A stretch of 64,000 nucleotides of DNA from Actinomadura graeca. GTDB taxonomy: Bacteria; Actinomycetota; Actinomycetes; Streptosporangiales; Streptosporangiaceae. The translations under genes and the position numbers were made by a program. Positions 13,201-53,734 of the stretch are shown here, one piece after another; the first letter of the stretch is position 1; each line of letters opens with the position of its first letter. The notes under the pieces were generated by a model. That model did no database searches, had not been told where the DNA came from, and saw only the letters and a list, made by a program, of their open reading frames with translations. The stretch lies in assembly GCF_019175365.1 (NCBI RefSeq), contig NZ_CP059572.1, forward strand, positions 5,642,001-5,706,000, written 5' to 3'.

Positions 13201-13238
13201 GTGAGTTCAAGATGCGCATGAGTCCGGTTCTGGTCTGA
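10233..13238 (+). CDS. STAND protein: alpha/beta hydrolase, NB-ARC ATPase, TPR repeats
   Basis: 1001 residues from a GTG with AAGGAG six bases upstream. Residues 1-245 form an alpha/beta hydrolase of lipase type: VFVHGVF, a nucleophile elbow VLVAHSQGG with Ser90, and candidate Asp194 and His216. Residues about 300-520 form an NB-ARC switch ATPase: P-loop AGLPGSGKS (Lys339), Walker B LLVFDNVDD (409-417), VVVTTRDR, and GLPLAL at 501-506. The last 450 residues are helical with TPR-like repeats (for example EKGRLLLEIGESEAAEEEMR). This is the layout of NLR-like STAND proteins: repeats sense, ATPase oligomerises, hydrolase acts. Membrane-lipid attack or another suicidal output is a reasonable inference. 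The gene stands alone in a low-GC region. Confidence 0.88.
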   Translation: MAPEPVQVVFVHGVFSSSTKTWPNFVRLIEQDEDLAGAVTLLTSFDYPSPKVRRRPDRRIPELEDLGHLLRTFFLNEVSPSAPVVLVAHSQGGLVAQRFLAQMVGSGEGRKLACIKHLLMYCCPNDGSQYMLAMRRSLSRLFRPLWSPQESTLRPLNKALGDIQATVVRAILNAREVSDSTCPIPITAVAGVSDNIVSPHNATAVFLARHHVPGDHFSSVRPTSADEQSYRVLRGVLLAAVNAERARDVAATASEAGHVRSGQPQHPDGPPERSSGGAAPPSALSHAGLSAPGSDELITPPFGQRDADLQGRDEQIAEIIGGGVPAEPQILAGLPGSGKSRIALELADWAQRGGRDVWWVHASQFNLAMRVVAAQAGASWSQIEVSWRDGSNTADLVWAHLNAYEKPWLLVFDNVDDPELLSRLGGTVADGDGWLRRSTSGRGMVVVTTRDRSPATWGAWSTLREVKPLPESHGATLLIERAGPQCGTNEEARRLAQRLGGLPLALRAAADYLRSVRGTEGVDSSLKIVDFESYRRALENRFNEPPGVADIPLGEAFGWKIVRNVFEMSLDLIDERGSPQAARLMRLFACLNIAQIPYKLLFTGPALPLSRLFPDLHDAGREAALGRLEDLCLIDRDVLSSVDGSQVIEVLSMHAVAHGVLRESQEVHHNADDYYGLNIRLLLNALKDHPADLERSWQIWGLLAPHCVEVLRAVLRHRNRRWRRSVVVLALELARSTSRYLIVRGLLRPLYNLLPAIIENCRSYEFAPTDREILALRHEKGRLLLEIGESEAAEEEMRSVVADREATLGSDAPDTWASRHKLARAILDQDDPDRWEEAELLLRDITARAQRGIDGFRISDTQVVAHTLARAVLLRHHPEEAEQMLRCILRVRGHLWPMATPETLFVRRTLAQCMLAYGDRKRAAEAEAEVRDALQRVPKQQQDAPVAMLLRQSLCSALLLQERISEVREIAEDLLADMRRVWGDSHPTTREFKMRMSPVLV

Positions 13239-17621: not shown

Positions 17622-17639
17622 GTGACCTCACAAGGAAGA

Positions 17640-17677
17640 GGGGCCGGAGCAGGCGATGATCCGCCCGCTCCGGCCCC
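17640..17677 (-). terminator. Hairpin between precursor and synthetase genes (attenuator)
   Basis: GGGGCCGGAGC (17640-17650) pairs perfectly with GCTCCGGCCCC (17667-17677). Inside the loop GGCG and CGCC extend the stem. It lies between the precursor stop at 17713 and the synthetase start at 17621. Such partial terminators commonly raise precursor mRNA over modifying-enzyme mRNA in lanthipeptide operons. Confidence 0.65.
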
Positions 17678-17712
17678 GGGGCTTCACGGTACGTGGACCT
17701 GTCCGCCCCGTA

Positions 17713-17874
17713 TCACAGGGTGTAACCGTCGCAGCGGAGCGTCCAGCCAGAGACGCAGGTGTTGCGGCACGCCGCTCCGGCGATGTTCACCTCGTCGCTG
17801 CTGGGCGCCATGGCGAACAGGCCGGCGGTGTCGATCCCGTCCGCCTCACGAGGGGCGGGGAGCTCAGATGACAC
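17713..17874 (-). CDS. lanA: Lanthipeptide precursor peptide
   Basis: 53 residues from a GTG with AAGGAAAGGAG five bases upstream, a very strong site. The leader is acidic and helical with TAGLFAMAPSSDEVN; the C-terminal part holds Cys36, Cys40 and Cys48 and Thr39, Ser42, Thr45 and Thr52. The segment SGWTLRC fits the Ser-x2-Ser/Thr-x2-Cys pattern that gives labionin or paired lanthionine rings. The leader/core junction probably lies around residues 30-35; no double-glycine site is seen. It lies between the transporter (18000) and the synthetase (17621) genes on the same strand, the expected place for the substrate. The core does not match a lanthipeptide I recognise. Confidence 0.82.
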   Translation of the reverse strand: MSSELPAPREADGIDTAGLFAMAPSSDEVNIAGAACRNTCVSGWTLRCDGYTL

Positions 17875-17999
17875 GACCACTCCTTTCCTTGCTGTAGCTG
17901 GGCAATTACATAAGGTAGCCATTGCTGGACGAGTGTCGCCATCGGCCGACCGGCAAAGACTCCGGAGATCATTGACAGCAGGCCGATCCACAGGCCGGT

Positions 18000-20033
18000 T
18001 CACGGTTGGCCGTGCTCGCCGCCCGAGGCGGTGCGCTCGGCCGGGCGGTAGGCCGACGCCTGGAGGTCGTACAGCTCGGCGTACAGCCCGCCGTTCCTCA
18101 TGAGCTGCGCGTGGGTTCCGTGTTCGGTGATGCGGCCGCCGCTCAGGACGTAGATGCGATCGGCGTGCCGGACGCTCGCGAGCCGGTGGGTGATCAGCAG
18201 GACGGTCCGGCCGCGGCGGGCGGCATGGGCGCGGATCTTGTCGAAGAGGTGGTGCTCGGCGCGGGCGTCGAGGGCGGCCGTGGGCTCGTCGCAGATCAGC
18301 AGCGGCGCGTCCCGGTAGAAGCCGCGCGCCGCCGCCAGCCGCTGCCATTGCCCGCCCGACAGTTCGAGCCCGTCGTGGAATCGCTTGTCGAGGAGGGTGT
18401 CCAGCCCGTACGGCAGGTCGGCGATCACCTCGTCGGCGCCCGCGGCGGCGACCGCCTGATCCACGGAGCGCCGCACGGCCGGCACCCCGACGTCGTCCCC
18501 CATGGTGATGTTGTCGGCCGCGGTCATCGGCCAGTGCGTGTGGTCCTGGGCGACGACGGCGATGGCGCCCCGGACGACCTCGGGGTCCAGGCCGTTCACC
18601 GACAGGTCGTCCCAGCGGACGTGCCCCCGCTGCGGGAGGTAGAGACCGGCCAGGACCTTCGCGAGCGTGGTCTTGCCCGATCCGTTCTCCCCGACGAGCG
18701 CGACGATCTCGCCGCGCCGCAGCCGTACCGATACCTCGTGCAGTGAGGGGGCCGTACCACCCGGATAGGTGAAAGTGACCTCCTCGGCGCTGATCTCCTG
18801 GAACCGCTTCAAGGTCTCGATCTGGCGCAGCGCCTCGGGCGCGGTGCAGGACGACCGGCCGTCGCGGGCCCGGCGCACGCCCGCCTCCGCCCGCCGGCAG
18901 TAGCCCAGGTAGTCGCTGAAGTACAAGCCGTCCTCGTAGCAGCGGTTCAGCGAGTAGATCAGGTTGACCAGCGAAGTCTGCCCCGCGCGGATCGCCAGGA
19001 CGGCGGTGCCGGCGACGGCCAGCGGCATGACGCCCCGCCACAGCAACGTGCCCAGGGCCGCGTACATCAGGGCGATCGCGACACCCTTGAGGACGTCCCC
19101 GCAGACCCGCGTCACGGTCTGACGCCACGCCAGGTCCAGCGACACGGCGCGGATGTGACCGGCGAGCTGGGTGTACCGGCGCAGCAGGAAGCCGCGGACC
19201 GTGAAGGAGCGCACCTCGGCCGCGTGCAGCCGCTCGGTCATCAGATCCGCCATGATCCAGCTGCGGCGCTGGACCTCCACCAGGTTCAGCTGGGTGAGGT
19301 ATCCCAGCCGGGCCGCCGCGACCGCCGCCCACGCCTCCGGAAGCGCGGTGAGCAGCAGCAACGGCAGGAGCAGCGGGTGGAGCACGCCCAAGGCACCGGC
19401 GGCCGCGGCGACCCCGACCACGGCGGTGAGCAGGTCCACCGTGTGGTCCACCATCAGCGGAGCCGCCTCCGCGCCCCGCAGCCGCGCGCGGTGCAGGTCG
19501 TCCTGGAAGCCGGCGTCGTCGAAGGCCGCCAGCTCGACCGCGGTGGTGACCTCGTACAGCCGGAGTTCGACGATCTGCTGGACCTGGGGCCGCAACCGCG
19601 CCTGCGCCCACTGCGCGACCGCCGCGCACGCCGCACGGATCGTCACCGCCGCCCCCACCATCAGCAGCTGCGGCGCCGCGGCCCGCACCTTGTCGGGCGT
19701 GGGCCCCGCCGAGAACAACGCCGTCAGCACACCCGTCGTGGCCAGCAGCCCGAACGCGGTGAAGACACCGGCGATGACATTGAACGCGACCGTGACGGCT
19801 AGGTCAGCCCGGTTGGCCCGCCACCCCAACCGCATCACCTGCCCCACCAGCGCGGGCAATTGCCGCGACATGGTGAGCATCCCGGTCTCCGCCAGCTCGG
19901 TGGCCCGGGTGTGCCAGGTGTGCCCGCTCAGTTCCGGCCCCAGCGGCGCCGTCCTCGACCGCCGTTCGCGCCGCTCGCGTGGTCCGCGCTGTTCGCGCCG
20001 TCCGCGCCAGAGGACCAGCCGCCGCAGCTTCAT
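18000..20033 (-). CDS. lanT: Lanthipeptide ABC exporter, fused membrane and ATPase domains
   Basis: 677 residues with GGAGG six bases before the ATG. A basic N-terminal tail of about 85 residues precedes a six-helix ABC exporter domain (about 85-385). The ATPase domain has Walker A LVGENGSGKTTLAK, signature LSGGQWQRLAAAR, Walker B APLLICDEPTAALDA and the switch histidine in VLLITHRLAS. No N-terminal C39 peptidase is present, so leader removal must be done by another protease. It is the first gene of the lanT-lanA-lanL operon and probably exports the modified peptide. Confidence 0.88.
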   Translation of the reverse strand: MKLRRLVLWRGRREQRGPRERRERRSRTAPLGPELSGHTWHTRATELAETGMLTMSRQLPALVGQVMRLGWRANRADLAVTVAFNVIAGVFTAFGLLATTGVLTALFSAGPTPDKVRAAAPQLLMVGAAVTIRAACAAVAQWAQARLRPQVQQIVELRLYEVTTAVELAAFDDAGFQDDLHRARLRGAEAAPLMVDHTVDLLTAVVGVAAAAGALGVLHPLLLPLLLLTALPEAWAAVAAARLGYLTQLNLVEVQRRSWIMADLMTERLHAAEVRSFTVRGFLLRRYTQLAGHIRAVSLDLAWRQTVTRVCGDVLKGVAIALMYAALGTLLWRGVMPLAVAGTAVLAIRAGQTSLVNLIYSLNRCYEDGLYFSDYLGYCRRAEAGVRRARDGRSSCTAPEALRQIETLKRFQEISAEEVTFTYPGGTAPSLHEVSVRLRRGEIVALVGENGSGKTTLAKVLAGLYLPQRGHVRWDDLSVNGLDPEVVRGAIAVVAQDHTHWPMTAADNITMGDDVGVPAVRRSVDQAVAAAGADEVIADLPYGLDTLLDKRFHDGLELSGGQWQRLAAARGFYRDAPLLICDEPTAALDARAEHHLFDKIRAHAARRGRTVLLITHRLASVRHADRIYVLSGGRITEHGTHAQLMRNGGLYAELYDLQASAYRPAERTASGGEHGQP

Positions 20034-41193: not shown

Positions 41194-41257
41194 CAGCTCT
41201 GGTAAGTGTGGACAAGGCCACTCGGCCTGCCCCACACCGATCGGAATGGAGGACGTC

Positions 41258-41692
41258 GTGAAGTTTCGCACCCTCGTCGAACCACCCGAGCCCATGCGGG
41301 GCCTGGAGGTTCCGCCCGAGGTGGTGGAGGCGCTCGGCGGGGGCGCGCGACCGCCGGTGACGATCACCATCAACGGGCATTCCTGGAAGAGCCGCGTCGC
41401 GATCATGCGCGGCCGCCTCCTGCTCGGCCTCAGCAACGCCAACCGCAGGGCGGCGGGTGTCGCGGTCGGCGACGAGGTCGAGGTCGAGCTTGAACTCGAC
41501 ACCGAGCCGCGTGTCGTCGTCGAACCCGAGGACTTCGCCCGAGCCCTGAACGACGACCCCGTCGCCCGTGCCGCCTACGACAACCTCGCCTACAGCCACA
41601 AGCGCGAGCACGTGCGCGCCATCGAGAGCGCGAAGAAGCCCGAGACGCGCCGACGGCGCATTGAGAAGGCCATCGCCGCCCTGCGCGGCTGA
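41258..41692 (+). CDS. YdeI/OmpD-associated family protein with DUF1905 domain
   Basis: 144 residues from GTG with GGAGG five bases upstream. Residues 1-95 are DUF1905-like (PPVTITINGHSWKSRVAIMR, VAVGDEVEVELELDTEPRVV), and the C-terminal 50 are the YdeI/OmpD-associated helical region (AYDNLAYSHKREHVRAIESA, ending RRRRIEKAIAALRG). The cellular role of the family is unclear. A second member is encoded at 53101-53553. Confidence 0.8.
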   Translation: MKFRTLVEPPEPMRGLEVPPEVVEALGGGARPPVTITINGHSWKSRVAIMRGRLLLGLSNANRRAAGVAVGDEVEVELELDTEPRVVVEPEDFARALNDDPVARAAYDNLAYSHKREHVRAIESAKKPETRRRRIEKAIAALRG

Positions 41693-41946: not shown

Positions 41947-42810
41947 TCAAAGGTGGGGGGCGAGTACCTCGGCGATTTCGCGGCAGCGGAGATAGGACTT
42001 GACACGGTGAGGGTCGAAGCGGTGGATGGTGATGTCCCGGTCGATCCACACGCCGTCGAAGCGCAGGGGCAGCGCGCGCCGTGGCGCCGCCACGGGGTCG
42101 CCCTTGTCGGACAGGTTCCACCACTCGCCCACGCCAGGGGGACGGATGCCCTTTCCGGCAGGCGGCGGCTCGAGGCGGTCGAAGACGACGTTGCGCATGG
42201 CGAGGGGGCTGCCGAGCGTCACCAGCAGGTCCACGCGTAGGTCCGGGGCGGAGCACAGCGCCTCGTATGCCACCACGCTGCCCAGGGAATGGGTGACGAG
42301 CCCCCTCGGCCGATGGGTGCGGACCGCATCGGCGACGCGCTCGCGGCAGCGTCGACGGCGGTCGGCGAACCGCGGGTCGAAGTAGGTGGCCAGCTCGGCG
42401 ACCAGTGCTGTGATAACCGGGATGCAGCGGGCACCATAGCGATCGGTGAGGAGACCCACGGCCTGGCGCAGGGCCGCCGTGACCCGGCCCGCCGGGACGG
42501 GTGCGGGCGCGTTCGACTCCGCCGCCTCCACACGTGTCTGCTCGGCCCACTCCAAGAACAGTGCACGCGCGAAAGGTTCGAGTGTGTCCGGCCGCGCCGC
42601 TCCCATGCCGGTTCCGCGGTCGAGGAGGTCGGCGTAGTAGGCGACCGGCATCTGGCTCGGACCTGCGAGCAGCGGATCATATGCCCGGCATCCCTCGCCG
42701 AGCCATTTTTGCCAGTCCGCCTCGATCGCTTGCATGGCGCCGGTGAGGTCCCGCGCGGCGCTGTAGTAGGAGAAGTTCCTGATTCCGTGCACCCCGACGA
42801 TCGACGCCAC
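41947..42810 (-). CDS. Lipase-like alpha/beta hydrolase
   Basis: 287 residues from a GTG with GGGAGG five bases upstream. It begins ASIVGVHGIRNFSYYSAA, a 'VHGi' oxyanion strand, and the nucleophile elbow is RGLVTHSLGSVVAYEALC with the serine in HSLGS. A late DRDITIHRFDPHRVKSYL may carry the catalytic His. It resembles the N-terminal hydrolase modules fused to STAND proteins (compare 10233-13238), but stands alone here. It diverges from the DUF4407 gene in a block with caspase and flotillin genes, so a conflict-system effector role is a reasonable inference. Confidence 0.78.
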   Translation of the reverse strand: MASIVGVHGIRNFSYYSAARDLTGAMQAIEADWQKWLGEGCRAYDPLLAGPSQMPVAYYADLLDRGTGMGAARPDTLEPFARALFLEWAEQTRVEAAESNAPAPVPAGRVTAALRQAVGLLTDRYGARCIPVITALVAELATYFDPRFADRRRRCRERVADAVRTHRPRGLVTHSLGSVVAYEALCSAPDLRVDLLVTLGSPLAMRNVVFDRLEPPPAGKGIRPPGVGEWWNLSDKGDPVAAPRRALPLRFDGVWIDRDITIHRFDPHRVKSYLRCREIAEVLAPHL

Positions 42811-43018
42811 CGGCCTCCCTTCGGTGAGGTCGAGGATCAGAATGGCCTTGAGAGGACATTGGCGGCACCCCGGATCTTCGACGGGCACGGATATTCTATG
42901 TGGGGAACGTGGGATGCGGGCACATCGTTCTCCGGGTGCGGGACGTAAATCATTCTCGCGCAACCGATCACAAGCCGTGCGGGGGTACGGTGACGAAACC
43001 TCAGAGGGTTCGCTCTTA

Positions 43019-44287
43019 ATGGGGGCCGTGGTCAAGACCCGTTCACGGTGGACGGGCAGGCTCGGCCATTTCCTGATCTTTGCCAGCGGCGCAGACCGCC
43101 CGATGTTGTCCCAGTGCCCCGAGGTGGAGCGCAACAGGTACCAGGGGCTCGGCGGCGCAGTGGCGACCACCGCCATCACCGCGGCCGTGTCGATGGCGGT
43201 GGCCGTGCGGTTGGCGTTCCACAACACGCCCGCCGGGGTGGTGGCCGGAGTCCTGTGGGGGCTGGCCGTCTTCAACCTCGACCGCTGGCTGGTGGCGAGC
43301 TACCGGTCGGCGCGCGGAGTGCGGCGCAAGCTGATCACGCTCGCGCCGAGGCTGCTGCTGTCCTTGGTGCTCGGTATCACGATCTCCGAGCCCTTGGTGC
43401 TGATGGTGTTCGAATCCGAGGTGACCGCGCAGGTCACCGCCATACAGCGGGAGCGGCAGGAGCGGGCGGAGCAAGAGATCGACCGCAGTCCGCTCGCCCA
43501 GAAGATCCGGTCCTACGAAGCGCGCATCGAGGATCTGCGCATGGGCCGGGCGGCATCCGGGGAACTGCGGGCGCAGCTCGATCGTCGTGCCGAACTCCAG
43601 CGGGAGCTGGACCAGGCCCGGCGGCAGCGCGGCCAGGTCGGCGCGCAGCTTCAGGGTGAGCAGAACGGTTCGTCGGGCACGGGGCGCGTCGGAGACGGCC
43701 CGGAGGCCCGCGCCCTGCGTGAGAGGCTGGCCGGGTTCGACCGGCAGATCGCAGACCTCGAGCGCGACCTCGCCGCGGCCCAGAAGGCCGTCGCGGGCCA
43801 GTCCGGGCAGGCGAATGCCGAGATCGGACGCCTCAGAGCCGACCAGGCGAAGCTGGTCGCCGAGCGCGACACCCGGATCGGCGAGGCGCGCCGGGCCAAC
43901 AGCCGTATCGACGGATTGCTGGTGCGCATCGAGGCGCTCGAGTCGCTGGGACGGCAGCATGCCGCGGTACGCGCCGCCCACTACCTTCTCGCTCTGCTCA
44001 TCCTCCTAGTGGACATTCTGCCGGTCATGGGGAAGGCCCTGATGGGCGCGGGCGGCCGGAGCACGTACGAGAACCTGCTCGCCGCCCGGGAGCTGGAGGC
44101 GAAGGAGCACAGCACGCGGCGCGTGCTGCGCCAGGTGGAGGCGACGACGGAGCTGCGGGCCGACACCCACGAGCGGCGGCGGCACCGGCGCTCCATGACC
44201 CGGATCGCACTCGCGGAGGAGCGTTACCGACGCCAGCGCCGCGTCGACCTCGACATTCCCGAGGCGGAGCATGACCTCGATCGGTGA
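43019..44287 (+). CDS. DUF4407 coiled-coil membrane protein
   Basis: 422 residues. Three membrane segments lie in the first 140 residues (VATTAITAAVSMAVAVRLAF, AGVVAGVLWGLAVFNLDRWL, LLLSLVLGITISEPLVLMVF). A long coiled coil follows (about 145-310, rich in Arg, Glu, Ala, Gln), then a fourth segment (YLLALLILLVDILPVMGKAL) and a charged tail. This is the layout of DUF4407 proteins, whose function is unknown. The stop overlaps the next gene by 17 bases, so the two are made together. It converges with the flotillin/caspase pair. Confidence 0.82.
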   Translation: MGAVVKTRSRWTGRLGHFLIFASGADRPMLSQCPEVERNRYQGLGGAVATTAITAAVSMAVAVRLAFHNTPAGVVAGVLWGLAVFNLDRWLVASYRSARGVRRKLITLAPRLLLSLVLGITISEPLVLMVFESEVTAQVTAIQRERQERAEQEIDRSPLAQKIRSYEARIEDLRMGRAASGELRAQLDRRAELQRELDQARRQRGQVGAQLQGEQNGSSGTGRVGDGPEARALRERLAGFDRQIADLERDLAAAQKAVAGQSGQANAEIGRLRADQAKLVAERDTRIGEARRANSRIDGLLVRIEALESLGRQHAAVRAAHYLLALLILLVDILPVMGKALMGAGGRSTYENLLAARELEAKEHSTRRVLRQVEATTELRADTHERRRHRRSMTRIALAEERYRRQRRVDLDIPEAEHDLDR

Positions 44288-45707
44288 TCTCATCAGGCCG
44301 ATGGACTGGACGCCACGGCTCCTGCGGGTGCGCGTCGGCGAGCGCGTGGTCGTCCTCGGCAAGGGCCGTCCGAAGGTGCTCGGGCCCGGCCGGTACGGGC
44401 CGATGTTCGGTCTGCCGCTGACGGGCGTGTCCGAGTACCTCGTCTTCAGCGCCCGGCCGGTGCGACACCGCGCGGTGCTCCCCGGCGTCCGCCTCGCGGA
44501 CGGGGAGCCGGTGAACCTCGAGGCGGAGACCATCGTCGGCCTGCTGCCCGTGCCGGACGAGGAGCTCCTCGACTGGGCGGCCGACATCGGCGTCGGCGAG
44601 CTGCCCATGGGCGAGGCATTGGCCGTGACGTTCGAGTCGACCCTGCGGCGCTTCTGCGGGACGGTCGGCTACGCGCGGGCGAGACGACTGCATTTCGAGC
44701 TGGACGAGCCGCTGCGCGCTTGGGCCGTCAGCATGGCAGACGGCCCACTGGAGATACGGAGCGTGAGCCGAGCGGTCGTGACGCCCGCGCCTGGCGCGGA
44801 TGCCCGGCACGCGGACCGCAGGTCGCGCGACAAGAAGGCCGTCGCCGCCCGCGCTGACGAGCTGACCGCATCCGCTCTCGCGCTGCTGCCCACCGGCCGG
44901 TCGGATCCGCTCCAACGCCGACGTGTCCTCGGCTGGATCGACCACGCCGACCACGAGCTGGAGTTGCTCGCCGACCTGCTTCGCACCCGTGGTGCGTCCG
45001 AGGGTGCCGTCGGCACGCTGCTGACCAAGGCGTCGATCGCGACGAGCCTGCTCTTGCTCGGCGCACTTCCGGGGGAGGAAGGCCGGCAGGCCCTGCTGTC
45101 CCTGTACTCCTGGGCGTCGCTGCGCGAGTCCTGCCCCGCCCAGTGGCCGGTGCTGCGCGGGTTGCAGCAGCGGGGTGACTTCGATGAGCTCAGGGTGATG
45201 CTCGGCATGATCGCTCCAGACCTGCCCTCCCCGAGACCGCCGGGGCCGGGACGGCCCTGGACGATGCCGGGCCGGCTCGTGCATGACCCGGCACTGCGCC
45301 CCCTCCTACGTTCCCACGGCATCGACGAGCTCGTGGAGGGGGCCTGCGTCGCGCCGACCCGTCGTCCGGGCGGGCGTGCCGTCTACCTCGCGAGCGTCCA
45401 GGCCGGGGAACTGCGCGACCGGCCGCCCGGCTGGGACCGCGTGCTGAACGATGCGTCCCGTACCGACCGGACCGTGGTGCTCGAGCTGTCGCCGGACCGG
45501 GGGGCGAGCCTGCGCGCGTGGTTTCGCGACCTGGTCGGGCCCGAGCCGAGGCGGGTCGAGGGCGTCCTTCACGGCGACGGGACGCTGACGCTGGATTTGC
45601 TGTCGGCGGCCCGGCCGAAGGATGTCCCGGCTTGGGCGCTGCACGTGTTCGCCGAGGTCGTCGCCGGGCTGACCGGGGTCGGTGACGTCGCGTTCCGGCA
45701 GTCATAG
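44271..45707 (+). CDS. Protein with SPFH/band-7-like N-terminus, unknown function
   Basis: 478 residues overlapping the DUF4407 gene. Residues about 15-110 read like the start of a stomatin-type SPFH domain: LLRVRVGERVVVLGKGRPKV, LGPGRYGPMFGLP, then a strand-rich region. No membrane helix precedes it. The middle (about 190-300) is helical, and the last 120 residues (GDGTLTLDLLSAARPKDVPA) form a separate domain I do not recognise. Coupling to DUF4407 and closeness to a flotillin suggest a membrane-associated scaffold. The family is not recognised with certainty. Confidence 0.6.
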   Translation: MTSIGDLIRPMDWTPRLLRVRVGERVVVLGKGRPKVLGPGRYGPMFGLPLTGVSEYLVFSARPVRHRAVLPGVRLADGEPVNLEAETIVGLLPVPDEELLDWAADIGVGELPMGEALAVTFESTLRRFCGTVGYARARRLHFELDEPLRAWAVSMADGPLEIRSVSRAVVTPAPGADARHADRRSRDKKAVAARADELTASALALLPTGRSDPLQRRRVLGWIDHADHELELLADLLRTRGASEGAVGTLLTKASIATSLLLLGALPGEEGRQALLSLYSWASLRESCPAQWPVLRGLQQRGDFDELRVMLGMIAPDLPSPRPPGPGRPWTMPGRLVHDPALRPLLRSHGIDELVEGACVAPTRRPGGRAVYLASVQAGELRDRPPGWDRVLNDASRTDRTVVLELSPDRGASLRAWFRDLVGPEPRRVEGVLHGDGTLTLDLLSAARPKDVPAWALHVFAEVVAGLTGVGDVAFRQS

Positions 45708-45730
45708 CCACGGATGCCGCCCCCGTGGGG

Positions 45731-48700
45731 TCAGCTCTGGCGTGCGAGGGCGATCACTTCCCCGTCGGCGTTCACGAGAAGGTTCCCGCCGGGCAGGACC
45801 AGAAGCCCGGTCACCGGCGACGGGAGGGTGAACCGGTGCTCCTGTCCGCGGCGCGTCAGGTCCCACACCACCACCGTGCCCGACCGGTCCCCGCTCACCA
45901 GCAGCGACGGCTCCCCGCCGTCCGACGGACCCGCCGCAAGCGCCGATATGGGAGCGGCATGCGCGCCGAGCACGCCGTCTCTGTGCGGGGTGCCCGCGCC
46001 CACGAGGCGGACGGTCGTGCCGTCGGCGTCGACGACCGCCTCGAACCGGCCGCCGTCGAGGACCAGTGTGGCGGGGCCTCCGATCGCGACGCGCCCGGCC
46101 GGGCAGGAGGGCAGGACGGCGCCGTCGCGGATGGACACGGCGATGTCGGTGCCGTCGTCCGCGGTGAGGACGATCGCGTCGGCGTCGGTCAGGCGCCAGC
46201 CGGTGATGTGGCCGGCGGCCGCCGTCGCCGTCCGGGGCCTGGTGGCGTCCGCGTTGCCGTGCCGGGCCTCGACCAATCCGCCCAGGTCCCACACCTGGAG
46301 GGGCGTGCCGTCCCCGGCCACGATCACGACGGCGTGACCGCGGACGGTGCCCCAGGCGATCCGGTGGATGCCGTCGAGCCGGGCGAAAGGTCGCGACCGG
46401 GCCAGGGGCCTGCCTGTGGAGAGGTCCCACACGTGTGCGGCACCTACCTCGCCACCGGCGATCACCACCGGGCTGCCGCGCAGCTCCGCGCACGTGAGCG
46501 TCTCCAGCATGCCCTTGTGGCCGCGCAGCTCGAAAGGCGGCGCGGCGGAGTCGTCCAGCCACCAGCCGCGGACGCGGCCGCCGCCTCCGGCCGTGACCGC
46601 GACGGGCCGCCGGTCACGGCTGCCGGCGGTCACCACCGTGGTGGACGTGCCGGTGTCCCGCTGGAACACCACCTGACCGGAGGCGAGGTCGACCGCGCTG
46701 ACCCGGCCCCCTTGCGCGGCGGTCAAGGCGCACGCCCTGCCCTCCAGCCGGACGATCGACAGGCCGATGAGGCGGCCGAGCCGTGTGACCGGCGCCCCGA
46801 CGGTGCGGCCGTCTGCGAGACCGAAGCAGTGCAGCCTGCCGGAGTCGTCCGCGACGACCACGGCCGGTGCGCCGTCGATCCACGCGCACGCCACGGCGGG
46901 CAGGAACGCCTGATCGTCGATCTCCCAGACGTACCGGGGCTCGGGCTCGGGTGGGCACCATGCGCGCGCCCTCCCGTCGGAGCCGGTACTGATCACCAGG
47001 GTTTCGTCCCCCACCTGCGCGCAGGCCAGCGCGTGCACCGATCCCTCGTGTGCCCGGACGGGACGCCTGCGGCGGCCCGGCCCGTCCGTCCACGGGATGG
47101 CGTCGCGCCGCAGAAGGTCCCACAGCAGGAGCCTGCCGTTGTCGTGGCCGGTCACGGCGACGGGAACGCCGTCCAAGGACACGTAGGCCAGCGCCGTGGT
47201 AGCCGTCTGCCAGCGTTTGATCCGAGGCAGCGCGAAGTCACCGGGAGGCGGTGTCCTTCCGCCGGTGCTGTCCGGGTCACGGGCGCGGCCCGCCGTCCAG
47301 ATCGGGACCCAGGGCAGGGGCGGCTCCGCGGGCGGGCAGGCGGCCCGGCGTGCGAGAACGGGTCGGCCGGCCCGGGCGGCGGCGAGCACGAACGCGGCGC
47401 GCCGCCTCCCGGCCGCCGCGGCGTCGGGTGCCGGCAGCCCGACGATCGTCGCGCGCAGGACGGTGTCCCCGGCTTCGTCCAGAACGGTGGCGAGCCGCTC
47501 AGGTGTGAGGCGGAGCAGGAACTCGGGATCGTCGAGCAGTGTCCGCTCCTCGCCCGCCTCGCAGGCGTGTTCCCAACCGTGTTCCAGCAGGTACGGCTCG
47601 GCCGCGTCCCAGTCCCGCGCGTCCTCCGGTCCGAGGACCGCGAACAGGGCGGACGGGTCGACCGGTCCGGTCTCGCGGAGCAGCTCCTGAGACAACCCAT
47701 GGTGGAACAACGAGTACAGCGCGGTGCCGTCGAGCTCGGTCGCCTGGCGCAGATAGTGGTGCCCCGAGACGAGCACGGCACGCAGGTCCGCCTCCACACG
47801 GGCGCGGTCGGCCTCGTCCTCCTCCTCGGGGACGGTGCCCGTGCGCACCAGGCGGAACAGCACGTCGGCGGGGATTCCCCGGCCCTTCGCCCGGGAGAGA
47901 AGACCAAGGAGGCGGCGCAGCCAGTGACGGGCGGGCCCGGTGGCGAGGTCGAGGTCCAGCATCGCGGCAGGGGTGCGTGGGATCCGCTCCCCGAGACGCT
48001 CGGCGTCCGCCGGGTCGGTCAGCGGTTCGCGGCGCTGCGCCGCCAGGAAGTGCTGCACGTAGAGCGTCGCGACGAGGAACGCCCCCCACTGCCGCGGCGC
48101 TCCCGGCCGGGTGAGCGCCTTGGCGACCGCGCCCGCGAAGGCCCCCTGTACCGTCGAGGACTCGCGGCATGCCCCATCATGTTCGATCACGTTGTACACA
48201 TAGATCGACAGATCGCTTCGCAGGACGTCCCTGTCGATCCGGTCCAGGTCCACGGTGAGCTCGGAGCGCCGCGGCGAGCGCAGCAGCGGGTCGAACTCAC
48301 GGTAGGGGCGGACGCCTACCAGCAGCCGCGCAGGCGTCGCGCCGTCGCCGCGAAGCCGCGTCCCGTCCACGAGAGGCAGCAGCAGCCGTCGCATGACCTC
48401 CGGGCCGTCCAGCGCCTCGTCCAGGGCGTCCACCGCGATCACAGGGCGGGTGCGCAGCGATCGCACCGCACCCAGGAACGCGTCGGCGGCGCCGCGGTCG
48501 GGGACGCCGAGCTGCTCGGCGAGCGCCGCCGTCACCTGCTCAAGGCTCCGCCCCGCGGCATGCACGGCTACGAAGCGGTCCTTCGGCATCACCGGTGGCA
48601 GATGCTGGACCCGCCCCAGCAGTGCACCAGTGTGCCGGGCGAGGACCGGGTGGGCGGCGCAGACCAGCACGCCGATCAGTGATGACTTGCCGGAGCCCGG

Positions 48701-49666
48701 ACCCCCCGTCACCGTCGCGAGTTCGCCGCCGTTCGTGGCCTCGAGCCAGTGGCCCAAGCTCTGCAGCTCCCGCTCACGTCCCGTAAAGTGGCTGATGATC
48801 TGCCCGTACCGGCCGTCCGCGCCGCCCGGGCCGGCGGCGGCCTCGACGAAGGGGACGCCGTAGCCGGGAACTCGCCTCCCGGGCGGCTGGGACGGATCGC
48901 GGGGCGGGGCCGGGTGTGCGGGCGGCGTCCCCCGGCCGGCGGGTGATCCCGCCGGGCGGTGGCGGAAGAACGGCGGGCATGCCTCGTCGTCGCTCGGGTC
49001 GACCAGCGTCGCCGCCACCTGCTGCGGGTAGTGGTCCGCCCGCCGGGCCAGCGCGTTGACCTCCTGCCGTATGAGGCGGGACACGACGGGGAAGGGGACG
49101 TGGGCGACACCGTCCGCCAGGTCGAGGCGGCCCTCGGAGATCCGGTGCAGCACCGCGGCGACGGCGAGGCTGAACCGGCCGTCGTACGCGAGTTCGTCTC
49201 GCTGGCAGGCCGCCACGACCCAGGCGCGGCGTTTCGCCGTGTCGAGGTCGGTCTGCCAAGCGAGCCGGGAGACGCTCCCGGCGTGGCACAGGTCGAGAAG
49301 GAACAGGACGGGGGAGCGGTCGGGCAGGTTCTCGACGAGCCGGATCCACCCCTCCACGTCGGCGGAGGGCCCGCCGTCGGAACCCAGTGCCAGGACGTTG
49401 CCGTGCGGCGCCTCGCCGTGCGTGATCACATGGACGACCAGGACGCGCTCCGGGCTGTCCTCCAGCTCTGCCCTGACCAGCGCGTCCAGTGCGGCGGACG
49501 TGATCTGCAGGACGACGCGGAGTCGGGAGTCGTAGCCGAGCCGGCCGAGGGCGGCGTCGATGTCGCGGGCGCGCTCGGCAGCGAACGGCAGCTCGTCCAG
49601 TCCCTCCGCGATGAACCGCTCGACCGCGACGACGAGCGCGCGGGGGCGGGGGGTGACCGGCGTCAT
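45731..49666 (-). CDS. Caspase-like protease fused to STAND NTPase and WD40 repeats
   Basis: 1311 residues. Residues about 8-235 are a caspase-like peptidase: catalytic His83 in VVHVITHGEAPHG and Cys127 in LFLLDLCHAGS. A proline-rich linker leads to a STAND NTPase (about 295-600): FTGRERELQSL, P-loop TGGPGSGKSSL (Lys327), Walker B VIAVDALDEA. From about 840 to the end there are WD40-type repeats (for example GHDNGRLLLWDLLRR, GGEVGAAHVWDLSTGRPL, GDRSGTVVVWDLTRRG). The expected scheme is sensing by the propeller, NTP-driven assembly, then proteolysis. Its ATG overlaps the stop of the upstream flotillin gene (ATGA). Confidence 0.9.
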   Translation of the reverse strand: MTPVTPRPRALVVAVERFIAEGLDELPFAAERARDIDAALGRLGYDSRLRVVLQITSAALDALVRAELEDSPERVLVVHVITHGEAPHGNVLALGSDGGPSADVEGWIRLVENLPDRSPVLFLLDLCHAGSVSRLAWQTDLDTAKRRAWVVAACQRDELAYDGRFSLAVAAVLHRISEGRLDLADGVAHVPFPVVSRLIRQEVNALARRADHYPQQVAATLVDPSDDEACPPFFRHRPAGSPAGRGTPPAHPAPPRDPSQPPGRRVPGYGVPFVEAAAGPGGADGRYGQIISHFTGRERELQSLGHWLEATNGGELATVTGGPGSGKSSLIGVLVCAAHPVLARHTGALLGRVQHLPPVMPKDRFVAVHAAGRSLEQVTAALAEQLGVPDRGAADAFLGAVRSLRTRPVIAVDALDEALDGPEVMRRLLLPLVDGTRLRGDGATPARLLVGVRPYREFDPLLRSPRRSELTVDLDRIDRDVLRSDLSIYVYNVIEHDGACRESSTVQGAFAGAVAKALTRPGAPRQWGAFLVATLYVQHFLAAQRREPLTDPADAERLGERIPRTPAAMLDLDLATGPARHWLRRLLGLLSRAKGRGIPADVLFRLVRTGTVPEEEDEADRARVEADLRAVLVSGHHYLRQATELDGTALYSLFHHGLSQELLRETGPVDPSALFAVLGPEDARDWDAAEPYLLEHGWEHACEAGEERTLLDDPEFLLRLTPERLATVLDEAGDTVLRATIVGLPAPDAAAAGRRRAAFVLAAARAGRPVLARRAACPPAEPPLPWVPIWTAGRARDPDSTGGRTPPPGDFALPRIKRWQTATTALAYVSLDGVPVAVTGHDNGRLLLWDLLRRDAIPWTDGPGRRRRPVRAHEGSVHALACAQVGDETLVISTGSDGRARAWCPPEPEPRYVWEIDDQAFLPAVACAWIDGAPAVVVADDSGRLHCFGLADGRTVGAPVTRLGRLIGLSIVRLEGRACALTAAQGGRVSAVDLASGQVVFQRDTGTSTTVVTAGSRDRRPVAVTAGGGGRVRGWWLDDSAAPPFELRGHKGMLETLTCAELRGSPVVIAGGEVGAAHVWDLSTGRPLARSRPFARLDGIHRIAWGTVRGHAVVIVAGDGTPLQVWDLGGLVEARHGNADATRPRTATAAAGHITGWRLTDADAIVLTADDGTDIAVSIRDGAVLPSCPAGRVAIGGPATLVLDGGRFEAVVDADGTTVRLVGAGTPHRDGVLGAHAAPISALAAGPSDGGEPSLLVSGDRSGTVVVWDLTRRGQEHRFTLPSPVTGLLVLPGGNLLVNADGEVIALARQS

Positions 49667-51045
49667 GACCCGTCAGCGGGCGCGGACTCCCTCCCCACCT
49701 CCAAGATCGCCTCGGCGACATGGGCCGAGCTCTCGCCCTCGAGGTCCTGAAGATTGCCCTCCTTCAGACCCTTGAGGAACTCCCCGACCATGTCGAGGGC
49801 GGGCCCTCCCATCGCTGTGAGCTGGGAGAGCAACCCGCCGGAACCGTCCCCGTTGACGGAGACGTTCCTGAGGTTGGAGAGGTCGGGACGGGACTTGGCG
49901 ACCTCCCCGAGCTGTTCAGCGACCGCGAGCATGACCAGCCCTTTGATCTCATCACCGGTCAAACCCTTGATCCGGGACGCCGTCTCCAGGCCCTTCGCCC
50001 GCGCGGCCGAGAGCAGCTTCACCTCCTCGACCACGGCCAGGTCCATCTGGCGCCCGTGTTCGGTGGCGTTGAGCGCCAGGCGCTCGGCGCTGGCGCGCTC
50101 GGTCCGGAAGTCGCTCTCCAGCTTCTCGATCTCCAATTCGACCCGGCGGGCCTCGCGCGTCCTCTCCGCCTTGACCCGCCGGTGCTCCTGCTCCTCGAGG
50201 TCCTTCTCGGCGGCCAGCTTGGCCTTGTGCCGCTCGCGCTCGGCCGTGATCTCCGCGACCTCGTGCTCGATGGAGTTCGTCCGGAGCAGCAGCTCATGCT
50301 GGCGTTCGGCGGCCTCGGCCTCCAGCCGTCTCTTCTCGACTTTCGCCTCCTCCTCCAGGCGCTTCCTGTCGATGTCCGCCTGCGTCTCCAGCTCCGTGGC
50401 CTTGAGCCTCCCGGCCTGTTCGGCCTCGATGACCTCGTTCCTTCTGCTGATCTGCGCGACACTGCGCCGGGCCTTGCCGATCTCGTCCAGGTCGTCGAGG
50501 CTCGTGAAGCCGACGTCCTGCACCACGAGCCCGTAGTCGGTGAACGCCTCGGTGATCGCATCCCGCACGCGGGCGACGACGCTTTGGCGGCGCGTGTTCA
50601 GGTCGTCGTGCTCGGTCTCGCTGACCACCTCGGTCAGCTTGCTGTGCGCGAGGTTGCGGATCGTCTCCGTCCTGCTCTCCGGCTGCATCGGGAGCCGCAC
50701 GGCGGCACGCCTGATGTGCTCCTTCTTGTCCTCGATCCGGTACGACAACGCCATGATGATGTTGACCCGCAGCTGCTGCTTCGTCTCACAGTTCTTGGCC
50801 TCGATCGGGATGTCCTCCACGGCGAGAGGGATCTCCCGGCGGCCGCGGTGCGGCGGCGGGACGAATTGCGCCCGTCCCAGGACGACGCGTAACCGCGCAC
50901 CGTCCGTCGTCTTGAATCCCCACAGGCCACCCCCTGAGAACACCACGGCCGTACTCGTGTTGGGCGGCGTCACCCGGAACCGCGTGTAGACCACATACCC
51001 GAAGATCGGCACGGCGACTGCCGCGATAGTGACAACCCAAAGCAT
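49663..51045 (-). CDS. Flotillin-like SPFH-domain membrane protein
   Basis: 460 residues from MLWVVTIAAVAVPIFGYVVY, a single N-terminal membrane helix. The SPFH (band-7) domain occupies about 25-210 (VEDIPIEAKNCETKQQLRVN, FTDYGLVVQDVGFTSLDDLD). A long charged coiled coil follows (about 210-400, EEEAKVEKRRLEAEAAERQH-type), as in flotillins. Such proteins form membrane rings or rafts. It is the first gene of a two-gene operon, coupled by a four-base overlap to the caspase-STAND-WD40 gene, so it probably places that protein at the membrane. Confidence 0.87.
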   Translation of the reverse strand: MLWVVTIAAVAVPIFGYVVYTRFRVTPPNTSTAVVFSGGGLWGFKTTDGARLRVVLGRAQFVPPPHRGRREIPLAVEDIPIEAKNCETKQQLRVNIIMALSYRIEDKKEHIRRAAVRLPMQPESRTETIRNLAHSKLTEVVSETEHDDLNTRRQSVVARVRDAITEAFTDYGLVVQDVGFTSLDDLDEIGKARRSVAQISRRNEVIEAEQAGRLKATELETQADIDRKRLEEEAKVEKRRLEAEAAERQHELLLRTNSIEHEVAEITAERERHKAKLAAEKDLEEQEHRRVKAERTREARRVELEIEKLESDFRTERASAERLALNATEHGRQMDLAVVEEVKLLSAARAKGLETASRIKGLTGDEIKGLVMLAVAEQLGEVAKSRPDLSNLRNVSVNGDGSGGLLSQLTAMGGPALDMVGEFLKGLKEGNLQDLEGESSAHVAEAILEVGRESAPADGS

Positions 51046-53100: not shown

Positions 53101-53553
53101 TCAGCGGGGCTTGCCCTGGCCGAGTGCCTCGATGGACTTGGCGATGCGCCGCTGCCGGGTCTGTTCGGTCTTGGCGCCGTCGATCTGCAGCACGTGGTAA
53201 CGCCGATTGCTGTAGGACAGGTCGTTCCAGGTCTGCTGCGCCGCCGGTTCCGAGGCGAGGGCCTGCGCGAAGTCCTCAGGAATCTCGACCACGCGAGGCT
53301 CGGTGTCCAGTTCGAGGACGACCTCGATATCCTCTCCCGCCTCGACACCCGCCCGTTTCCGGTTCTCGGCGGCCAGCGGCAGCATGTACCGGTCACCGTA
53401 GACGGCGACCGTACTGCGGTAACTGTGGCCACCGATGGTCACCTTCACCTTCGGCTTCTTGCCCGCTCCCAGCTGCTGGACCACCTCGGCGGGAACCTCG
53501 AAGCCGGTCGCGGTCCTACCGCCCAGCTCGACTGTGGTCCGGAACTTCTTCAC
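53101..53553 (-). CDS. YdeI/OmpD-associated family protein with DUF1905 domain
   Basis: 150 residues from GTG (VKKFRTTVELGGRT). The DUF1905-like part has PKVKVTIGGHSYRSTVAVYG and IEVVLELDTEPRVVEIPEDF; the C-terminal helical part has WNDLSYSNRRYHVLQIDGAK and RQRRIAKSIEALGQ. It is clearly paralogous to the protein at 41258-41692 (shared LELDTEPRVV and RRRIxKxIxAL patterns). Function unknown. Confidence 0.82.
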   Translation of the reverse strand: MKKFRTTVELGGRTATGFEVPAEVVQQLGAGKKPKVKVTIGGHSYRSTVAVYGDRYMLPLAAENRKRAGVEAGEDIEVVLELDTEPRVVEIPEDFAQALASEPAAQQTWNDLSYSNRRYHVLQIDGAKTEQTRQRRIAKSIEALGQGKPR

Positions 53554-53734
53554 CGCACATCCCCCCTGATCATCCATATCGACGGGCTCCGCAGGAGAGC
53601 CTCTTCTGCCGAGTCTGGTTTGTCATCTTGTCCCACGCGGAGTCCGGCACACGCCAACGTCTCGGCGCGATCCGCCAGAACCCGTATGGAGCATCTCGGA
53701 TTGACGCATGCCGATATGGGCATATGATGGGGGG

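What the first reader, a model, noticed from the sequence alone, without database searches (positions are those of the whole stretch)
41947..51045. Flotillin coupled to a caspase-STAND-WD40 protein, facing a DUF4407/band-7-like pair and a lipase-like gene
Seen: five genes without unrelated genes between them. A flotillin-like protein overlaps by four bases a 1311-residue caspase-STAND-WD40 protein with His83, Cys127 and an intact P-loop. Convergent to it, a DUF4407 membrane protein overlaps a protein with a band-7-like N-terminus, and a lone lipase-like gene diverges from DUF4407. Known: caspase-STAND fusions are linked to biological conflict and cell death in multicellular bacteria. Inference: two membrane scaffolds hold a protease that fires on a signal seen by the WD40 propeller, with the lipase as a second effector. 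I do not know a described system with this exact set.
Basis: partly seen in the sequence, partly recalled or inferred. Interest (0 to 1): 0.8.

Follow-up and report, generated by a model that had tools for sequence, protein, structure and literature searches.

The report
Membrane-coupled bacterial caspase death module
An actinobacterium carries a rare, conserved gene cluster that couples a protein resembling the animal cell-death machinery (a caspase joined to its own switch and sensor) to membrane-organising proteins and a lipase-like enzyme, probably so that an attacked cell can kill itself.

Summary
Four of them form a conserved module: flotillin (FLOT) overlapping the caspase-STAND-WD40 gene (CASP) by four bases, convergent with DUF4407 and a Band-7-like gene (BLP). 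The same block occurs in 4 of 4 loci found with full-length BLP, in four genera of one family, at 30-44% protein identity to the window. Their CASP proteins form one clade (100/99). The lipase-like gene (HYD) is not a fixed fifth member: it sits beside the module in 2 of 4 loci, on opposite sides and from different HYD lineages. HYD is the usual partner of the wider CASP family: adjacent in 10 of 10 plasmid records and 11 of 16 non-module family places. Kaur 2020 already reports caspase plus alpha/beta-hydrolase pairing in VMAP conflict systems (passage). Catalytic residues are invariant in the rows aligned. Best reading: a known kind of caspase-NLR/lipase suicide core carrying a new membrane module of one or two SPFH proteins plus DUF4407.

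The parts
41947..42810 (-). HYD: alpha/beta-hydrolase, predicted lipase/esterase; motif THSLGS with Ser175, His268 and Asp235/Asp238
   Evidence: Pfam PGAP1 E 0.013, below cut-off; 6 of 7 members match PGAP1 at E up to 0.1; Ser175, His268, Asp235 and Asp238 invariant in 36 of 36 HYD rows; no membrane segment by hydropathy
42811..43018 (.). 208-base divergent intergenic region between HYD and DUF4407, presumably holding both promoters (inference, not scanned)
   Evidence: Coordinates of the two genes
43019..44287 (+). DUF4407 membrane protein: hydrophobic segments near 45-65, 105-130 and 323-341; charged, helix-rich middle (by eye)
   Evidence: PF14362 E 1.2e-69; hydropathy; module-type orthologues 4 of 4
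44271..45707 (+). BLP: 478-aa protein with weak N-terminal Band-7/SPFH similarity and an unknown C-terminal region
   Evidence: No Pfam match itself; Band_7 at E 1.3e-4 and 1.4e-4 in 2 of 4 orthologues; full-length relatives in 4 of 341 family genomes
45731..49666 (-). CASP: caspase domain (about 9-160), STAND NTPase (about 293-430 and on), C-terminal WD40 propeller(s) (about 820-1300)
   Evidence: His83, Asp125, Cys127, P-loop G321, G324, G326, K327, S328 and Walker B D413, D416, E417 invariant in 30 of 30 rows
49663..51045 (-). FLOT: flotillin-like SPFH protein with N-terminal membrane segment and a charged, coiled-coil-like C-terminal part (by eye); overlaps CASP by 4 bases
   Evidence: Band_7 E 1.3e-12; membrane segment 1-19; 4-base overlap with CASP in 4 of 4 loci

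Best explanation
The locus encodes a membrane-coupled caspase-NLR of the biological-conflict type. CASP is sensor, switch and protease in one chain: the WD40 part senses a signal or holds the protein autoinhibited, the STAND NTPase oligomerises on nucleotide exchange, and clustering activates the caspase. FLOT, made in step with CASP, anchors it at the membrane, probably with DUF4407 and BLP as a cage or microdomain. On firing, the caspase cleaves or releases partners, and HYD, where present, attacks lipids, so the infected or damaged cell dies. Shown: gene set, arrangement, conservation, intact catalytic residues. Inferred: membrane co-localisation, oligomeric activation, HYD as lipid effector, self-killing.
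For: The four-gene block is conserved in 4 of 4 loci at 30-44% identity to the window and with different outside neighbours; one clade of CASP; 4-base FLOT-CASP overlap 4 of 4. Catalytic residues invariant in 30 of 30 CASP and 36 of 36 HYD rows. CASP-HYD adjacency in 10 of 10 plasmid records that match at least half of CASP and 13 of 20 places in family genomes. Two CASP-HYD loci also carry a SIR2-like gene. Of 14 other DUF4407 loci, 11 lie in gene sets with DO-GTPase-like and/or AAA and radical-SAM genes. Kaur 2020 (PMC7159879, passages): when a caspase is present in VMAP systems there is always a neighbouring alpha/beta-hydrolase gene.
Against: No function tested. No known-defence model matches (PADLOC, E up to 0.1: only mad8 at 0.0063 on the P-loop region). 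HYD is not beside the module in 2 of 4 loci, and a related HYD clade is a chromosomal gene without caspase in 11 of 11 loci examined. No record of the phage collection matches CASP at E 1e-5. BLP as SPFH is weak. Membrane attachment of CASP itself is inferred only from gene coupling.
Confidence: 0.45

Rival explanations
1. Membrane quality control or envelope-stress response. FLOT (with BLP) is a cage around a regulated protease, as HflK/HflC is around FtsH, but with a caspase-STAND protease; CASP trims membrane or signalling proteins and no cell death is involved.
For: Two SPFH proteins around a membrane protease is an established arrangement: HflK/C cage with AAA+ proteases inside, as described in PMC11260169 (abstract and introduction). 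FLOT and CASP overlap by 4 bases in 4 of 4 loci.
Against: Patchy distribution, 4 of 341 family genomes with full-length BLP and only the window's genome in its own genus, different outside neighbours in the four loci, and CASP relatives paired with HYD on two plasmids next to Tn3 transposases look like a conflict system rather than housekeeping.
Confidence: 0.2
2. The membrane proteins are the executioners and the caspase their trigger: CASP cleaves DUF4407 and/or BLP/FLOT, which then permeabilise the membrane (gasdermin-like logic); HYD is an accessory.
For: DUF4407 has several hydrophobic segments; the module occurs without adjacent HYD in 2 of 4 loci; DUF4407 recurs beside other switch-type gene sets.
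Against: No cleavage site or pore was looked for beyond hydropathy, and the structure jobs failed. I found no report of a DUF4407 activity: 3 papers of the library name it, seen as a listing and not read.
Confidence: 0.2
3. Two neighbouring, independent systems: FLOT-CASP(-HYD) and DUF4407-BLP meet by chance.
For: The two pairs are convergent and so not one operon.
Against: The same convergent block in 4 of 4 loci, with dedicated FLOT and DUF4407 paralogues and the same closest pair, G173-G200, for all four proteins.
Confidence: 0.04

Closest known systems
Caspase plus alpha/beta-hydrolase pairs of VMAP ternary conflict systems (Kaur et al. 2020, PMC7159879; passages read)
   Same: Caspase-family protease with a neighbouring alpha/beta-hydrolase gene; actinobacteria among the hosts; Band7 domains also occur there as scaffold domains on the vWA protein.
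   Different: No MoxR, vWA or VMAP gene found here; the caspase is fused to a STAND NTPase and WD40; separate flotillin, DUF4407 and BLP genes.
Bacterial NLR/STAND antiphage proteins; animal Apaf-1 with caspase-9 (recalled)
   Same: STAND NTPase between an effector domain and a repeat sensor; Apaf-1 WD40 repeats appear among the PDB matches of the CASP profile.
   Different: Caspase in the same chain, and coupling to SPFH membrane proteins.
canu caspase-nuclease systems (PMC12799240; passages read)
   Same: Caspase encoded with another hydrolytic enzyme that it may activate (shown for canu, only supposed here).
   Different: The canu partner is a metallo-beta-lactamase-fold nuclease; here a predicted Ser-His-Asp alpha/beta-hydrolase.
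HflK/HflC-FtsH SPFH protease cage (as described in PMC11260169, abstract and introduction; FtsH named from recall)
   Same: SPFH protein coupled to a protease; possibly two SPFH proteins.
   Different: Protease is a caspase-STAND protein, not a membrane AAA+ protease; BLP as SPFH is unproven.
EACC1-caspase two-gene membrane system (Kaur et al. 2020, passages)
   Same: Caspase domain related to NF047832; proposed to act near the membrane.
   Different: NF047832 score 18.5 against a cut-off of 140; the 5' partner is a flotillin-like protein, not described as EACC1.

Membership tests
Caspase/alpha-beta-hydrolase pairing (Kaur 2020) | Caspase domain with intact His/Cys | tested here: met
   His83/Cys127 in 30 of 30 rows; NF047832 in 7 of 9 and Peptidase_C14 in 5 of 9 members
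Caspase/alpha-beta-hydrolase pairing (Kaur 2020) | Neighbouring alpha/beta-hydrolase gene | tested here: met
   In the window; 10 of 10 plasmid records; 13 of 20 family places, the module itself 2 of 4
VMAP ternary system | MoxR AAA+, vWA protein and VMAP genes | tested here: not met
   None of the five proteins nor the 7 nearby proteins scanned has vWA or MoxR matches; not every gene of the window was scanned
EACC1-caspase system | EACC1 gene 5' of the caspase and NF047832 above cut-off | tested here: not met
   18.5 bits against 140; the 5' gene is a Band_7 protein
STAND/NLR NTPase | P-loop, Walker B and C-terminal superstructure repeats | tested here: met
   Motifs invariant in 30 of 30; AAA_16 in 9 of 9, nSTAND1 in 7 of 9, NACHT in 5 of 9 members at E up to 0.01; WD40 in 9 of 9
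Experimentally known antiphage systems | Match to a PADLOC model | tested here: not met
   Only mad8 at E 0.0063 to the P-loop region
canu | MBL-fold nuclease beside the caspase | tested here: not met
   No MBL match among the five proteins or the 7 nearby proteins scanned
SPFH protease cage | Two SPFH proteins | tested here: inconclusive
   FLOT yes; BLP Band_7 in 2 of 4 members below cut-off, no profile similarity to FLOT
SPFH protease cage | Physical cage around the protease | not testable with these tools
   Needs co-purification and cryo-EM; structure jobs failed

The most novel reading that the evidence does not exclude
A self-contained bacterial 'apoptosome' (caspase, STAND and WD40 in one chain) is confined inside, or tethered to, a hetero-SPFH membrane cage made of FLOT and BLP with the DUF4407 membrane protein: the HflK/C-FtsH principle used to hold a death protease in check. 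Disturbance of the membrane cage itself, for example by phage entry or lysis proteins, would be the trigger, with HYD destroying lipids after release.
Probability: 0.2. Interest if true: 0.87.

Novelty: new variant of a known kind. Interest (0 to 1): 0.6.

Why it matters
Bacterial caspases and NLR-like proteins are thought to be the roots of animal cell death, but how they are held safely and where they act in the cell is mostly open. A caspase-NLR gene coupled to a flotillin gene, with a conserved second membrane operon, makes a membrane-localised bacterial inflammasome directly testable, and gives DUF4407, a family of unknown function named in 3 papers of the library searched, a place beside conflict-type gene sets.

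Tried and rejected
A fixed five-gene system: rejected, since HYD is beside the module in 2 of 4 loci only and from two HYD lineages.

HYD as an exclusively caspase-linked family: rejected. A separate clade (Lys instead of Asn at position 12 in 11 of 11 rows) is a chromosomal gene with no CASP match in 11 of 11 stretches of 20 kb examined; the twelfth region taken with them was a CASP-linked locus that I already had.

Generic flotillin next to a caspase by chance: rejected for those seen. 29 loci with other flotillins (L002, L009-L036) show no CASP, BLP, HYD or DUF4407 match in their flanks of up to 1.5 kb (at least 4 of the 29 are cut short by contig ends). They are the best-scoring part of a longer list, not all of it.

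FLOT and BLP as recent duplicates: not supported. A terminator-like hairpin between the convergent stops: z -0.09, no signal. RNA genes in the window: none found. BLP, FLOT or DUF4407 on plasmids at E 1e-5: none. CASP in phage records at E 1e-5: none. BLP elsewhere: a class sample of 246 genomes, some of them of the same family, gave only the window and one weak C-terminal match; an order sample of 200 gave the window, G173, the two N-terminal-only matches and one weak match in a gene called as a different protein; the genome-contig scan found only the three relatives already known, but it relied on two short peptide patterns. Structure of BLP and of CASP 1-770: both jobs failed and could not be repeated.

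Limits of counts: the genome search scored 2 candidates per genome for CASP and 7 for HYD, so these are not full censuses; one CASP beside HYD (G200 contig 171) was found only by fetching. G254 and the plasmid-collection record of Nonomuraea gerenzanensis appear to be the same locus (CASP and HYD of the same length and the same opening residues), so the two series overlap by one. In one search the active-site table and some lengths used wrong reference rows; one search replaces them. Gene calls in fetched stretches come from a simple script of mine, which missed some genes.
Full report
What is there. The five genes were confirmed by ORF listing and translation and their junctions by sequence. 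From low to high coordinate: HYD (minus, GTG start), 208 bases, DUF4407 (plus), overlapping BLP (plus) by 17 bases, 23 bases between the convergent ends, CASP (minus), overlapped for 4 bases by FLOT (minus). Pfam gives DUF4407 (E 1.2e-69), Band_7 for FLOT (1.3e-12), AAA_16, nSTAND1 and WD40/propeller models for CASP, a sub-threshold PGAP1 match for HYD and nothing for BLP. PADLOC gives no system.

Is the caspase real? In the window protein alone the evidence is thin (NF047832 E 0.0011, 18.5 bits against a cut-off of 140). With nine relatives it is good: NF047832 in 7 of 9 (best 4.6e-17) and Peptidase_C14 in 5 of 9 (best 3.6e-6). On an alignment of 30 CASP proteins His83, Asp125, Cys127, Gly130, the P-loop (G321, G324, G326, K327, S328) and Walker B (D413, D416, E417) are invariant in 30 of 30. 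These 30 were those of the fetched loci whose match covered most of the caspase and NTPase parts. For HYD the nucleophile Ser175 in HSLG, His268, Asp235 and Asp238 are invariant in 36 of 36; 6 of 7 HYD members match PGAP1 at E up to 0.1. That Ser175, His268 and one of the two Asp form the catalytic triad is inference from the fold family.

A conserved four-gene module. A profile of BLP found full-length relatives in 4 of 341 genomes of the window's family: the window's genome and G173, G200 and G282, plus two N-terminal-only matches, in G140 and G165. A scan of genome contigs found the same three and no other: Streptosporangiaceae bacterium NEAU-GS5, Acrocarpospora catenulata H8750 and Sinosporangium siamense NBRC 109515; the last two are Streptosporangiaceae in the NCBI taxonomy, from which I take the family's name. 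A class-wide sample of 246 genomes gave only the window and a weak C-terminal match in one genome. In 4 of 4 loci the gene set and orientation are the same: FLOT then CASP, facing DUF4407 then BLP. The FLOT-CASP overlap is 4 bases in 4 of 4; the block spans 7.9 to 8.4 kb. Identity to the window's proteins is 31-32% for FLOT, 40-44% for CASP, 30-34% for BLP and 42-44% for DUF4407, and for all four proteins the closest pair is G173-G200, so the block is old and seems to be inherited or transferred as a unit. Apart from HYD, the outside neighbours differ among the loci. In a tree of 30 CASP proteins the four module members form one clade (100/99), needing one change. FLOT and DUF4407 of the module are dedicated paralogues: in the four genomes the next FLOT match falls to E 3.5e-37; in 298 family genomes the module DUF4407 score E 1.5e-158 or better in 4 genomes and the next scores 1.4e-63. 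The 29 other flotillin loci examined have no module gene in flanks of up to 1.5 kb.

The lipase-like gene belongs to the wider caspase family. In the window HYD lies beyond DUF4407; in G173 it lies beyond FLOT, so the four-gene block is inverted relative to HYD. In G282 there is none within the 20-kb stretch fetched, and in G200 none was called, though that contig ends about 1.2 kb beyond FLOT. In the HYD tree the window's HYD groups with one that sits beside another CASP gene (G200 contig 171, 97/82), while G173's groups with that of G200 contig 6 and a HYD of G282 that has no CASP match in its 20-kb stretch (98/89). I read this as two separate recruitments; the lone HYD in G282 may act in trans (inference).

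Away from the module, HYD is the usual partner of CASP. In the plasmid collection 13 records match CASP, and 10 of these cover at least half of it; in 10 of 10 HYD is adjacent (NZ_CP108278 and the Arthrobacter plasmid, whose genes are fragmented, judged by match coordinates). In reverse, 26 plasmid records match HYD. Of the 14 that match at least 80% of it, 13 have a caspase or CASP-like gene next to it, two of them, in Sinorhizobium, on the annotated name 'caspase family protein' alone; the exception is Streptomyces chartreusis. Of the 12 with lower coverage I looked at 6: three have a CASP-like gene adjacent (L053, L068, L069), two show none by profile (L067, L070) and in the Leptolyngbya stretch my caller found no genes (L066); 6 were not looked at. 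In family genomes the 20 CASP places with E at most 1e-150 have HYD within two genes in 13 of 20: 2 of 4 module and 11 of 16 others (the CASP gene of G253 placed by coordinates, the HYD of G093 incomplete as called). The 7 without are G200 contig 177, G282, both G094 places, G328 contig 40, G212 contig 543 and G292, where HYD is about 5.7 kb and four called genes away.

Results against a pure conflict reading of HYD: 162 of 338 family genomes have an HYD-type match at E 1e-10. Eleven of the many single matches with E near 1e-80 to 1e-93 were examined: they form a separate clade (100/100), 9 of 11 lie within two genes of an ArfB-like or HAD-like gene (names by eye), and none has a CASP match in 20 kb. 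So HYD is drawn from a broader enzyme family.

Links to conflict biology. Two CASP-HYD loci, G200 contig 171 and G328 contig 31, also carry a SIR2-like gene. CASP-HYD occurs on two Streptomyces plasmids next to Tn3 transposases and integrases. Of 15 stretches fetched around other DUF4407 matches (chosen mostly from the top of the list), DUF4407 was called in 14. By BLAST against representatives 7 of 14 have a DO-GTPase-like gene, its neighbour and a protein kinase gene; 4 of 14 have a radical-SAM gene, a partner and an AAA ATPase gene, with the DO-GTPase-like gene also in the stretch; 3 of 14 have a third set whose only lead is a sub-threshold nSTAND3 match. The representatives were named by Pfam: DO-GTPase2 is sub-threshold in the two where it appears and absent in a third relative scanned, the kinase, radical SAM and AAA are clear. 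DO-GTPase systems, and FtsH-type ternary systems with radical SAM genes, are conflict systems in Kaur 2020 (passages); I did not show that these DUF4407 loci are members of them. An N-terminal relative of BLP occurs in G140 and G165 beside JAB-ThiF and HerA-like genes.

Literature. Kaur 2020 (PMC7159879, passages) states that in VMAP systems a caspase always has a neighbouring alpha/beta-hydrolase gene and lists Band7-like domains among scaffold domains; the passages shown describe no flotillin or SPFH gene paired with a caspase-STAND protein, 'flotillin' occurs 0 times in its main text, and 'SPFH' once, in the reference list. PMC8195603 (passages) has no 'SPFH' or 'flotillin'. The canu paper (PMC12799240, passages) gives the precedent of a caspase activating a partner enzyme. 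PMC11260169 (abstract and introduction) describes HflK/C as a cage holding AAA+ proteases. Searches for the combination showed no described system with this set among the rows listed; the lists are capped, the library lacks most subscription papers, and PMC13174449, PMC13236601 and others were seen as listings only.

How it most likely works. CASP has the parts of Apaf-1 and a caspase in one chain (comparison recalled). The 4-base overlap of FLOT and CASP argues for coupled translation and a complex. FLOT has one N-terminal membrane segment; DUF4407 has hydrophobic segments near 45-65, 105-130 and 323-341; HYD and BLP have none by a simple hydropathy scan, and the single CASP hit lies inside the WD40 part. 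I therefore propose a membrane-held caspase-NLR whose activation ends in proteolysis and, where HYD is present or acts in trans, lipid attack. Sensor, trigger, substrate and outcome are inference. BLP as a second SPFH protein is only weakly supported.

Verdict. The core (caspase, switch, lipase partner) is a known kind; the dedicated FLOT/BLP/DUF4407 membrane module is, as far as these searches reach, an undescribed variant.

Noticed in passing
window 41246-41692 (+) and 53101-53577 (-): Two OmdA/DUF1905 (YdeI-like) paralogues, 52% identical over 144 aa, flank the five-gene block and an exonuclease-BRCT gene in opposite orientation; whether this marks an insertion is unknown.
   Followed up: partly
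window 10233-13238 (+): A 1001-residue protein with an N-terminal alpha/beta-hydrolase and a sub-threshold AAA match, an architecture recalling fungal NLRs with lipase-like effectors (recalled); possibly a second conflict gene in the window.
   Followed up: no
window 14832-20033 (-): RamC-like protein with kinase and LanC-like domains (class III lanthipeptide synthetase type, recalled) next to an ABC transporter gene.
   Followed up: no
L038 9380-17942 and L039 9129-15594: An N-terminal relative of BLP (Band_7 E 0.0035) heads a locus with a JAB-ThiF fusion and a HerA-like ATPase, suggesting a ubiquitin-like conjugation system with a Band-7-like part.
   Followed up: partly
L139 7468-13405 and L150 9669-15711: Three-gene variant: CASP, HYD and a SIR2-like domain protein.
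   Followed up: partly
L177-L190: Other DUF4407 genes of the family sit in three recurring gene sets: 7 of 14 with DO-GTPase-like, neighbour and kinase genes, 4 of 14 with radical-SAM and AAA genes, 3 of 14 with a set holding a weak nSTAND3 match; DUF4407 may be a general part of conflict systems.
   Followed up: partly
L132 8731-14913: A CASP relative called as 2060 aa whose N-terminal extension looks like a ClpC-type N-domain by eye.
   Followed up: no
L143 8725-14350, L144 5565-11205, L145 6160-11517, L147 7659-13319: Split versions in which the caspase-STAND part and the WD40 part are separate genes, with HYD between or beside them.
   Followed up: no
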